Below, piece after piece: positions 58,427 through 61,236 of a stretch of 64,000 nucleotides of DNA. Source of the stretch: Verrucomicrobiota bacterium. GTDB taxonomy: Bacteria; Verrucomicrobiota; Verrucomicrobiia; Chthoniobacterales; UBA10450. A program made the translations under genes and the position numbers. The stretch's first letter is position 1. Every line of letters begins with the position of its first letter. The notes under the pieces are model-generated. The model was not told where the DNA came from. It worked only from the letters and a program-made list of their open reading frames with translations, and made no database searches. The stretch spans positions 1-64,000 of the forward strand of contig QHNH01000018.1 in NCBI GenBank assembly GCA_003218375.1, in the 5' to 3' direction.

Positions 58427-58582
58427 GATCAGCTACCGTTAACCCTGGCGCAAATCAACCGCACCGCTTGGTTCGGCCCCAAGAACCCATCTGCGAAGTT
58501 CCTATTGGGAAGCGAGCGACATGGGTGGACCCGTGAGGGTGAGTCTTCTGGGAACAAGGCGAATCAAGCCACGCACGATTAC

Positions 58583-58645
58583 TTATAACCAATAACAATT
58601 AACTCGCGCATACGCGCGCCCGTTCGCTCCATCGCTTGGTTAGGC
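58583..58645 (-). repeat. attC-like site D
   Basis: On the minus strand GCCTAAC (58645-58639, RYYYAAC core) follows the stop of the 58650 ORF, and GTTATAA (58589-58583) stands where GTTRRRY is expected. The stem start GCCTAACCAA pairs with TTGGTTATAA, and GCGCG pairs with CGCGC near the tip. The arm GCGATGGAGCGAACGGGC also occurs in the complete attC at 60700-60822. The 63-bp length is normal for attC, but the second core is degenerate. Confidence 0.55.
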
Positions 58646-58649
58646 CTCA

Positions 58650-59120
58650 TTAGGGCGAGTCACGGATGATTTGGCGGAGCTGGGTGATGGGCATCTCTCC
58701 CATCCATCGCAGGCGGTCGCCACTGAAGGCGACGGAGTAACAGTGCTCCGCTGGCGACCCGACGAAGAACAAAATCTGTCCGTCTCCGTAATCGGTATTT
58801 TCTCGGATTTCTGTATTTCCGTGACGAAACTCGTCGCCAACACGGTAGTAAAAGGCTGTGTTCGGAGCCTGCTTTAGGATTTCGGCAATGACGCACCGTA
58901 AAGTCGAACCCGACTTTTCGTATCGGGCCAGAGCAATCACGCTAGCGGCGCGGATTTTCTTTTCTGGCGGTCCGTCAAGGCGGGCACACGGATTCGACCA
59001 CGAGCAAAATTGGACGGCCACCGTAAAGACGCCGATTGCAATGATGCCACTGAGAAGCCACACCGCTGCGGTGAGGCGGCTGACCTTCCGGTGGGTGCGA
59101 TCAATGGGCTGAGCGGTCAC
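58650..59120 (-). CDS. Cassette ORF: single-helix exported protein
   Basis: A 156-aa protein starting at GTG 59120 with a hydrophobic helix (LTAAVWLLSGIIAIGVFTV) and an extracytoplasmic domain (TLRCVIAEILKQAPNTAFYY; ILFFVGSPAEHCYSVAF). A GTTAGGC core lies 17 nt before the start and a GCCTAAC core follows the stop by 4 nt, exactly the boundaries of an integron cassette. No family is recognised, as usual for cassette genes. Confidence 0.6.
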   Translation of the reverse strand: MTAQPIDRTHRKVSRLTAAVWLLSGIIAIGVFTVAVQFCSWSNPCARLDGPPEKKIRAASVIALARYEKSGSTLRCVIAEILKQAPNTAFYYRVGDEFRHGNTEIRENTDYGDGQILFFVGSPAEHCYSVAFSGDRLRWMGEMPITQLRQIIRDSP

Positions 59121-59136
59121 GTGCGGGATGGCAAAG

Positions 59137-59205
59137 GCCTAACGAGCCGGAGCTGAGCCACCGCTGGCGGGAGCGAGCTTTCGCAACTGCGAGAACTGTT
59201 TCATA
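59137..59205 (-). repeat. attC-like site C
   Basis: On the minus strand this site ends with GTTAGGC (59143-59137) just upstream of the 59120 ORF. The stem is partly visible: GAAAGCTCGCTCCCGCC pairs imperfectly with CACCGCTGGCGGGAGC-type sequence. The distal RYYYAAC is not clear (nearest ATGAAAC), so the outer limit is approximate. Confidence 0.4.
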
Positions 59206-59369
59206 AAATTAAACGTTGACAACACAGCGGCCATTGGCCCGGGGCGACATTTGCTCGCGTTGCTTCCCACTTCTCAACGTACACCCACGTGCCGGAGACG
59301 TTCGTGTCGGCACTAATATCGCAGACTGACCGTAGGACATGCGGGTTTGCGAGCCGGGGAAGTAGGCCT

Positions 59370-59531
59370 TTACTCCGCTTCCGGCTCTGGTTCTGCGGCC
59401 TGAGCGGTCGGGCTTGGCGTGCTCGCCGCTCGCTTGACGAGCCGTTCAAAGCTCTTTGCGGTCCCTTTGCCTTTGCTGGCATCGAGCGCCAGTCGCTCAA
59501 GCGTTTCTTCGCGTGTTTCAGTTTTCTTCAT
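59370..59531 (-). CDS. Small ORF (53 aa) coupled to the 59528 gene
   Basis: An ATG at 59531 overlaps the TGA of the upstream gene by four bases (ATGA), and 53 codons run to TAA. The product is hydrophilic: MKKTETREETLERLALDASK, then GKGTAKSFERLVKRAAS, then a Pro/Ala/Glu-rich end. Charge periodicity in the first 20 residues suggests a helix. The overlap argues for real translation. It could be a small partner, antitoxin-like or regulatory protein of the upstream membrane protein, but no family is recognised. Confidence 0.5.
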   Translation of the reverse strand: MKKTETREETLERLALDASKGKGTAKSFERLVKRAASTPSPTAQAAEPEPEAE

Positions 59532-60166
59532 GGAGCAAGCTCGCTAGGGAACTTCCAAGCTGGATATTTAAAGATTGGAGAACCTACAGGCGGAAAGGTC
59601 ATTCGCATAGTGTTGAGTACAAAATCCCCCTTTACGATTATGTGTGCGGAGTCGGCCCATACCATCTGGAACACTGGCGCTCCGTTCTCATCCACGATTT
59701 CTAGCGCAGAATCGTTAGAGTTCATATCCCATCCGTGCGGCTTACCCTGCAGTTCGTTGTGGCGAAGCTTGATCGGGTGCTCACCTGGTAAAAGAGCGGC
59801 ATTAAAATCCGCAAAAAATTCGCCGTTTTCTACATATAGCGTGATAGGAGCCTTGTCGCCCATCACTATCGGCTCCCATCGCGCGCCCGCCTTTAACTCA
59901 CTGGCGAGCTTGTGCGCGATAATGCCGCTACCAAGCGTAAACCGATATTCATCTACGCGTTCATTAAAACGCGGAAAGCGACGCTTGGTTACATCCCTTT
60001 GCCATTCCCTATCCTGTAACCAACAAGCACCCGCCAGTCCGATAAAACAAAACGCGGCAAGACCTGTCCAAATAGAAAGACTCCTATGACCAAGTGTGCC
60101 AACTATCGCAGATATCAAGCTGAAGACCGCGAACAGGGCTCCAGAAACGTAGAGGGCCGTATCCAT
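59528..60166 (-). CDS. Cassette ORF: two-helix membrane-anchored protein
   Basis: A 212-aa protein from ATG 60166 (MDTALYVSGALFAVFSLISA; an in-frame GTG at 60280 would add 38 basic residues). Two helices lie at ~5-30 and ~31-50, followed by a soluble domain (~55-212) rich in beta-strands (ITLYVENGEFFADFNAALLP; SALEIVDENGAPVFQMVW). A GCCTAAC core lies upstream at 60323 and the array continues downstream. Function unknown. It is coupled to the 53-aa ORF. Confidence 0.58.
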   Translation of the reverse strand: MDTALYVSGALFAVFSLISAIVGTLGHRSLSIWTGLAAFCFIGLAGACWLQDREWQRDVTKRRFPRFNERVDEYRFTLGSGIIAHKLASELKAGARWEPIVMGDKAPITLYVENGEFFADFNAALLPGEHPIKLRHNELQGKPHGWDMNSNDSALEIVDENGAPVFQMVWADSAHIIVKGDFVLNTMRMTFPPVGSPIFKYPAWKFPSELAP

Positions 60167-60184
60167 GCGAGTTCTACTTATTCG

Positions 60185-60283
60185 ATGAACGCGCGAGAAC
60201 TCTGGACGGGGCCGATCGTTTTCTTCATGATTGGGGTTGCCGTTGGGTTTTTTGCGTTTGCGCTGCTTTCGACGTTTCACTGA
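60185..60283 (+). CDS. Possible 32-aa single-helix membrane peptide
   Basis: A short plus-strand frame (MNARELWTGPIVFFMIGVAV, then GFFAFALLSTFH and TGA) encodes one clean membrane helix. It lies divergently from the 60166 gene and is followed on the same strand by the GTTAGGC at 60317. The composition looks like a real membrane peptide, but there is no clear ribosome-binding site and the length is short. Treat as speculative. Confidence 0.25.
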   Translation: MNARELWTGPIVFFMIGVAVGFFAFALLSTFH

Positions 60284-60323
60284 CCATCAAGTATATTATT
60301 ACCGCTGCATCGTTTGGTTAGGC
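60284..60323 (-). repeat. attC-like site B (partial)
   Basis: GCCTAAC (60323-60317, minus strand) follows the last sense codons of the 60318 ORF, and its stop TAA lies inside this core, a common cassette feature. The arm GCCTAACCAAACGATGCAGC matches the arm of sites A and D. The distal core is not clear, so the limit is approximate. Confidence 0.45.
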
Positions 60324-60698
60324 GTTGCGGTCGGTTTCACGTGTGACTTTGCGCGTAGACAGATCGAGCACGAAACACTCTCCGCGCTCGTTGTTGATCA
60401 CAAGAACGTTGCCGCGGCGCTTCAGCGACGTGATGAATACATCCTGCACGTCTTGCTCTGACGTACGGTCCTAACGGATAGCATAAATGCGCTGACGCCA
60501 AAGCTCTCGGTTGGAGGCCGCATCCGTGGCGATGACGATGCCAATCGGCCAACCCGGTGCTGAGAAAGTGACGCCTGCGACTGTCACTGGCTCCACGAAC
60601 TTCGGAGGCGACCGCTTCGCGCTGACCGGAGCAGCGATGCCGACGAGAAGCGAGCATATCGCTGTCGCGACAAACGTTGGTTTACGAAAAGCGAGCAT
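60318..60698 (-). pseudogene. Cassette ORF interrupted by an in-frame amber codon
   Basis: The frame starts at ATG 60698, 1 nt after a GTTAGGT core (60706-60700), and encodes a signal peptide (MLAFRKPTFVATAICSLLVG) and a short exported protein. A TAG at 60473-60471 interrupts it after ...RQRIYAIR. The same frame then continues with well-formed protein, DRTSEQDVQDVFITSLKRRG and NVLVINNERGECFVLDLSTR, to TAA at 60320-60318, which lies inside the GCCTAAC core. Without the amber codon the protein would be 126 aa. Either a nonsense mutation, a sequencing error or read-through; the intact coding character after the TAG suggests a recent event. Confidence 0.6.
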
Positions 60699-60699
60699 C

Positions 60700-60822
60700 A
60701 CCTAACGAGAATAAGATGAGCGACGGGCACCGAGGGCGCGCGTCGCTTGCAGAGGAAGGGTGAAAGCGAGAGCAAGGGTGGACCCGCGGCGGGTGCCCGT
60801 TCGCTCCATCGCATGGTTAGAT
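60700..60822 (-). repeat. attC-like site A (complete)
   Basis: On the minus strand the site begins ATCTAAC (60822-60816, fits RYYYAAC) and ends GTTAGGT (60706-60700, fits GTTRRRY), 123 bp in all. Inside, GGAGCGAACGGGCACC pairs with GGTGCCCGTCGCTC with one unpaired base, as expected for the extrahelical base of a folded attC bottom strand. The central part holds a further imperfect stem rich in CGCGC. This is the best attC candidate in the window. Confidence 0.72.
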
Positions 60823-60851
60823 GGTTGGTGTGGCATGTGGGAGAACTATGA

Positions 60852-61082
60852 TTAGGGTAACTCTTCGATAACGATGGCACCACGGCTCTCTTCTTGCCTC
60901 AGCGCGCAGAGAATCTCGTCCGTCTTTGCTGGCTTCTGGCTCACGATCTCAAAATTACCGCCTGGCAACTCTCGAAACCTCGCAGGGCAGCACTCGATCA
61001 ACTCCGCGAGGAAATTCGTGCGATACACCGGCGGGAGGTGCACCGCGAAACGAACAAGAAATCGGCCGGTCGAGCTCACCAT
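60852..61082 (-). CDS. Cassette ORF: small protein of unknown function
   Basis: A 76-aa protein whose ATG (61082) is formed inside a GTTAGAT core (GTTAG-ATG), the closest possible placement to a cassette boundary. The sequence (MVSSTGRFLVRFAVHLPPVY; FLAELIECCPARFRELPG; GNFEIVSQKPAKTDEILCAL) looks like a compact alpha/beta protein without signal peptide. The stop at 60852 is followed by the ATCTAAC core of site A after 29 nt. Function unknown. Confidence 0.6.
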   Translation of the reverse strand: MVSSTGRFLVRFAVHLPPVYRTNFLAELIECCPARFRELPGGNFEIVSQKPAKTDEILCALRQEESRGAIVIEELP

Positions 61083-61112
61083 CTAACTACAATTAGACGA
61101 AACAAAGTTTCG
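61081..61112. repeat. Core site and short hairpin at the start of the array
   Basis: ATCTAAC (61081-61087 on the plus strand, GTTAGAT on the minus) marks the upstream limit of the last recognisable cassette. It is followed by the palindrome CGAAAC-AAA-GTTTCG (61098-61112). A full attC or attI is not evident, and no integrase follows at higher coordinates. Confidence 0.35.
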
Positions 61113-61236
61113 CCTATTTCGGGGGTGCACGAGAGAAAGCTCTGGAGAAAAGGGAAACATGCTTGTCGATTTTATTCGCTGGCCCCTTCGATCGCAAGCC
61201 GAAAGCGTTCCGGTGCATCGACGTCGTGAGGATATC

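What the first reader, a model, noticed from the sequence alone, without database searches (positions are those of the whole stretch)
58583..61112. Array of integron-like gene cassettes without an integrase (candidate CALIN)
Four minus-strand coding units are bounded by RYYYAAC and GTTRRRY cores in the exact order of cassettes: GTTAGAT-ORF-ATCTAAC (61082), GTTAGGT-ORF-GCCTAAC (60698), the coupled pair 60166/59531, and GTTAGGC-ORF-GCCTAAC (59120). One start codon lies inside its core (GTTAGATG) and one stop inside its core (GCCTAAC). Arms with CGTTCGCTCCATCGC and GGTTAG are shared by sites A and D, and a shorter form by site B. No tyrosine-recombinase gene is seen to 64000. Clusters of attC sites lacking an integrase are known from IntegronFinder surveys; in this lineage it would be of interest. 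The coding units are unrelated to each other and to known families.
Basis: partly seen in the sequence, partly recalled or inferred. Interest (0 to 1): 0.8.

Follow-up and report, generated by a model that had tools for sequence, protein, structure and literature searches.

The report
Broken integron with attC-invading transposon remnant
The window holds the remains of a gene-collecting system (an integron) in a soil Verrucomicrobia relative: its integrase was cut down to a stub and one recombination site was split by a jumping gene whose relatives repeatedly land at that same spot, which suggests a previously unreported way for such sites to be attacked.

Summary
The array is real, but it is one intact attC plus three half-sites, not four intact cassettes. 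An attC covariance model built only from other sites in this genome hits 60700-60822(-) at 121 bits (E 4e-32). The genome carries about 38 such sites on 12 contigs.

It is a decayed integron rather than an array that never had an integrase. Its head is an attI followed by a leader and about 15 codons of intI (61081-61204). Two other heads in the genome keep 48 and about 19 codons. Congeners have intact IntI.

It is the passenger region of a 995-bp, transposase-less IS1595-type transposon (59309-60303) sitting in the L'' box of an attC.

Autonomous relatives in four other genomes and elsewhere in this one sit at the same attC position with perfect 8-bp target duplications: 5 of 17 TSD-bounded elements, against roughly 0.1-0.3% of the genome being attC. 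Their transposases fall in one supported group.

attC-targeting was known for IS1111 elements and group IIC introns. I found no report of it for IS1595.

The CALIN itself is a new member of a known kind. The IS1595-attC association is the new variant.

The parts
61125..61204 (+). leader and 5' stub of intI (ATG 61159; about 15 codons, frameshifted; similarity ends at AAGCCGAAA)
   Evidence: aligns with the leader and first codons of the intact intI of G023; leader+stub alone z 5.6, 0 of 500 shuffles; with attI z 14.6
61081..61124 (-). attI; core GTTAGAT at 61087-61081
   Evidence: 95% over 41 bp to C19, 82% over 65 bp to C2 of the same genome, 72% over 79 bp to the attI next to intI of G023
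60852..61082 (-). cassette 1 ORF, 76 aa, no known family
60700..60822 (-). intact attC (R'' ATCTAAC, R' GTTAGGT)
   Evidence: R1 121 bits, E 3.8e-32, site left out of training; folds z -3.95 on the minus strand, -2.91 on the plus strand
60471..60701 (-). cassette 2 ORF, 76 aa
60304..60323 (-). 5' half of a second attC: R'' GCCTAAC plus L'' GATGCAGC, ending exactly at a transposon end
59309..60303 (.). IS1595-type element without transposase (995 bp), both terminal inverted repeats present
   Evidence: GGTAATAATATACTTGA at 60303 and GGCACTAATATC at 59309; homology with the C21 element at both ends
60185..60283 (+). passenger gene: 32-aa membrane protein MNARELWTGPIVFFMIGVAVGFFAFALLSTFH
   Evidence: conserved in the C21 transposon (L170)
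59528..60166 (-). passenger gene: 212-aa protein with N-terminal membrane segments
   Evidence: 46% identity over the first 65 aa to C21 57359-57553, inside an IS1595 transposon
59370..59531 (-). passenger gene: 53 aa, overlaps the previous gene
   Evidence: nucleotide homology to the C21 element over window 59308-59533
59137..59175 (-). 3' half of another attC (L', R' GTTAGGC)
   Evidence: R1 16.6 bits, E 0.02; similar to the attC at C21:59613
58650..59120 (-). cassette ORF, 156 aa
   Evidence: 61% identical relative over 107 aa in G164, not next to an attC there
58577..58645 (-). 5' half of an attC, cut off after AATCGTG
   Evidence: R1 18.4 bits; 84% over 74 bp with the complete attC at C21:59613

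Best explanation
The locus is a residual integron. An attI and the start of intI head a minus-strand cassette array, and a deletion took the rest of intI. Shown: one intact attC, an attI with intI stub, and three half attC sites. Also shown: one attC is interrupted in its L'' box by an IS1595-type element that has lost its transposase gene, and autonomous relatives of this element sit at the same attC position, with 8-bp target duplications, in several species. Inferred: the transposase recognises attC (R'' plus L'', or the folded site) and so splits and inactivates cassette ends; deletion next to the element then removed the other half of this attC and part of the next cassette. The remaining intact attC could still be used if a related IntI were supplied in trans.
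For: attC: (double-sided pair changes in 5 of 22 pairs). IntI: none intact here, a 48-codon stub beside three attC sites on C32 and about 19 codons on C21; over-cutoff IntI in four congeners. attI and stub in the window. Element: PF12762; NF033547. Targeting: the TIR pattern and the transposase search were made without reference to attC; 5 of 17 elements with an 8-bp TSD lie in an attC, with insertion 20 nt after the start of R'' (21 in one with a spacer longer by 1 nt). The window and G002:C13 show the same offset at one end, and G168:C196 probably does too (by reading). P is about 1e-9 or lower from attC's share of the genome; the five attC cases lie together in one supported group of nine transposases.
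Against: The window element lacks a matching TSD at its left end and has no transposase, so its insertion rests on one junction plus homology. Three of the nine elements in the attC group sit elsewhere (GCTGCAGC, GCTCAACC, GAATTTAG). Joined flanks give a complete attC in G005 and G003, but R' is poor in C21 and G006 and the 3' half is not evident in G019. Part of the preference may be for the 8-mer itself. Everything is from assemblies; nothing was tested in a cell.
Confidence: 0.85

Rival explanations
1. The array arose by IntI-made insertion of cassettes at a non-attI (attG) site, with an integrase elsewhere.
For: attC clusters are scattered over 12 contigs, and off-target insertion is a proposed origin of CALINs (PMC8618304).
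Against: The head of this array is homologous to attI with leader and intI start. No empty site could be compared: the right-hand flanking gene is absent from the seven congeners held.
Confidence: 0.08
2. The IS1595 elements choose an 8-bp sequence (GATSSAGC-like) or a palindrome, and attC is hit only because its L'' box contains it.
For: G007:C23 sits in GCTGCAGC outside attC; elements outside the attC group often sit in hairpins.
Against: About 1100 such octamers are expected per genome and attC holds at most about 4% of them, yet 5 of 5 GATSSAGC-type insertions with TSD are in attC (P about 1e-7). G002:C13 and G168:C196 have other L'' sequences at the same distance from R''.
Confidence: 0.2
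3. The whole pattern is chance core motifs.
For: 7-bp cores are common in any genome, and three of the four sites score weakly.
Against: E 3.8e-32 for one site with a model that did not include it; some 38 sites in the genome; 0 for the reversed-pattern control.
Confidence: 0.01

Closest known systems
CALIN / degenerate chromosomal integron
   Same: attC-bearing cassettes without a working integrase; loss of intI is one of the proposed origins (PMC8618304)
   Different: only one intact attC here, and the attI with an intI stub is still visible
IS1111-attC group (ISKpn4, ISPst6; Tetu and Holmes 2008, Post and Hall 2008, cited in PMC11187229)
   Same: an insertion sequence that goes to attC sites of gene cassettes
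   Different: IS110-type DEDD transposase guided by a seekRNA, inserting at one end of attC; here a DDE transposase of family IS1595, 8-bp duplications, position in the L'' box, passenger genes
group IIC-attC introns
   Same: mobile element specific for attC
   Different: retroelement; no transposase, inverted repeats or target duplication
IS1595 family (ISXo2-like) transposons with passenger genes
   Same: PF12762 and NF033547 transposase, terminal inverted repeats, 8-bp duplication, passenger genes
   Different: a group with preference for attC is not among what I could find; in Shewanella, IS1595 elements were reported in cassette arrays but no IS was found interrupting attC (PMC9229058)

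Membership tests
attC site (60700-60822) | R'' RYYYAAC and R' GTTRRRY enclosing an imperfect inverted repeat with L boxes and unpaired bases | tested here: met
CALIN (IntegronFinder) | two or more attC sites close together | tested here: inconclusive
   one strong hit, two half-sites with E 0.006 and 0.02; IntegronFinder itself not run
CALIN (IntegronFinder) | no intI nearby | tested here: met
   no intact IntI in the window or the genome; a stub of about 15 codons remains
complete integron | intact intI next to attI | tested here: not met
IS1595 family (C21 and relatives) | DDE transposase of the family, inverted repeats, 8-bp target duplication | tested here: met
IS1595 family (window element) | transposase gene | tested here: not met
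   lost; 20 nt lie between the small membrane gene and the right end of the element
IS1595 family (window element) | 8-bp duplication at both ends | tested here: not met
   GATGCAGC at the right junction only; left flank TTCGTGTC
IS1111-attC group | IS110/IS1111 DEDD transposase | tested here: not met
   the transposase is PF12762
attC-targeting element | recurrent insertion at one position of attC | tested here: met
   biochemical specificity not testable with these tools

The most novel reading that the evidence does not exclude
A group of IS1595-family transposons in Chthoniobacterales has evolved to recognise integron attC sites (R'' plus L'' context) and inserts into the L'' box with 8-bp duplication, so it acts as a specific parasite of cassette arrays, a third independent kind of attC-targeting element after IS1111-attC and group IIC introns. 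The window shows a transposase-less copy.
Probability: 0.7. Interest if true: 0.65.

Novelty: new variant of a known kind. Interest (0 to 1): 0.55.

Why it matters
Cassette arrays without integrase are common and their fate is poorly understood. Here the steps can be read in one genus: integrons with intact IntI, heads with cut-down intI, and attC sites split by a transposon that appears to look for them. A DDE transposase with a preference for attC would give a testable case of target choice by a folded or repeated DNA site without a guide RNA.

Tried and rejected
Rfam for attC: nothing informative. Reading the 60166/59531 pair as a cassette: rejected after the inverted repeats and the C21 relative were found. 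attG origin: set aside after the attI and intI stub were found; an empty-site comparison was not possible because the right-hand flanking gene is missing in the congeners and the left-hand one is not conserved. Cassette ORFs in 83 family genomes: one relative of the 156-aa ORF, without attC. IntI remnants by protein in the window: none above noise; the stub shows only at DNA level. Passenger proteins: no family except a sub-threshold DUF4145 match. My first transposase identities used the wrong reading frame and were replaced.

Full report
What was claimed. Four minus-strand cassettes at 58583-61112, bounded by attC cores, with no integrase.

The attC sites. Fifteen complete sites from other contigs were aligned and made into a covariance model without the window site. 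On the wider alignment, 5 of 22 pairs show changes on both sides that keep the pair, chiefly in the inner stem. The model finds 60700-60822(-) at 121 bits and only weak hits for the other three places. Genome-wide it finds 38 sites with E below 1e-4 on 12 contigs. The same family is present in all seven congeners and all other members of the family sampled, and is rare outside it. The exact 5' signature occurs in public genomes mostly from Spartobacteria/Chthoniobacterales and other Verrucomicrobia MAGs, with some from Acidobacteria, Bryobacterales and one Nitrospirota. Contig lengths identify G002, G005 and G007 with three of these MAGs (palsa_1395, palsa_1414, palsa_1379), so the window lies in that genus.

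The integrase. The genome has no IntI over the family cut-off. XerC/D-like proteins are on C3 and C40. On C32 a 48-codon IntI stub, 73-78% identical to a congener's IntI, lies beside three attC sites and ends next to rlmN (named by eye). On C21 a 172-bp piece with attI and the first 19 or so codons is 95% identical to C32. Four congeners have intact or nearly intact IntI. At the head of the window array, 61081-61124 is homologous to attI sites (C19 95% over 41 bp, C2 82% over 65 bp, G023 72% over 79 bp with intI directly behind it). The similarity runs on through the leader and start codon to AAGCCGAAA, about 15 codons into intI. So the array most likely lost its integrase by deletion.

The 'coupled pair'. 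The half attC at 60323-60304 stops at GGTAATAATATACTTGA. The same end lies in C21, where a 2001-bp transposon with an IS1595-family transposase is inserted in an attC with the duplication GATCCAGC on both sides. The window element shares both ends, the 32-aa membrane gene, the 212-aa gene and the 53-aa gene, but the transposase gene is missing and the left flank shows no duplication. The simplest course is insertion, loss of the transposase gene, and a deletion that took the far half of this attC and part of the next cassette. This order is inferred.

Is attC a preferred target? The end sequence was searched in 83 genomes of the family (25 matches, 2 in the control), and so was the transposase. 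Seventeen elements have both ends and an 8-bp duplication. Five lie in the L'' box of an attC: G000:C21, G006:C8, G005:C24, G003:C10 (left) and G019:C9. The insertion is 20 nt after the start of R'', or 21 where the spacer is one longer. Joined flanks give complete attC sites in G005 and G003. The window and G002:C13 share the offset with one end known. G168:C196 has ACTTAACCGAGCGGTGCATC at one end, also 20 nt, which I count as probable. Two more (G007:C20, G003:C10 right) sit 17 nt after an R''-like CATCTAAC in a different conserved sequence. The chance of five or more by attC's share of the genome is about 1e-9 to 1e-11 (computed for 18 elements); allowing for the octamer it is about 1e-7. 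The five transposases lie in one group of nine with 99/99 support. Three other members of that group are not in attC, so the preference is strong, not absolute. Outside the group several elements sit in hairpins, for example G165 and G008:C339 (my reading).

Comparison with the literature. Loss of intI and off-target insertion are both proposed origins of CALINs (PMC8618304). attC-targeting is known for IS1111 elements and group IIC introns (PMC11187229, PMC9229058). A search for IS1595 with attC gave nine papers; the two I looked into describe no IS1595 insertion into attC, and the Shewanella survey found no IS interrupting an attC. Subscription papers, including the founding IS1595 family paper, were not available.

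Limits. No cell-based test. MAG assemblies. Small numbers. IntegronFinder itself was not run.

Noticed in passing
G000:C2:47852-47916, C19:198206-198246, C23:2804-2842 (L166, L168, L176): attI-like sites head or lie within several other arrays of the genome, so it holds many cut-down integron heads.
   Followed up: partly
window 61194-61204; L219 (G168:C196); L166 (C2): Three intI stubs lose similarity at nearly the same place (AAGCCGAAA, codon 15 or so), although the loci are in two genera; unexplained.
   Followed up: no
L182/L144 (G005:C24): intI and the cassettes lie on the same strand, with an attI-like site at the 3' end of intI: an inverted-type integron.
   Followed up: no
L052, L182, L214, L217: The sequence YCTAACCCCTRTGTAGGGAGTCAA follows cassette ORFs in several genomes and is itself hit twice by IS1595 elements; possibly another end-of-array site.
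   Followed up: no
L227, L228, L231 (G165, G171, G008): IS1595 relatives outside the attC group sit in the loops or centres of hairpins.
   Followed up: no
L018 (G000:C25:242609-242673): A 65-bp attC with a minimal loop, the shortest of the sites used to train the model.
   Followed up: no
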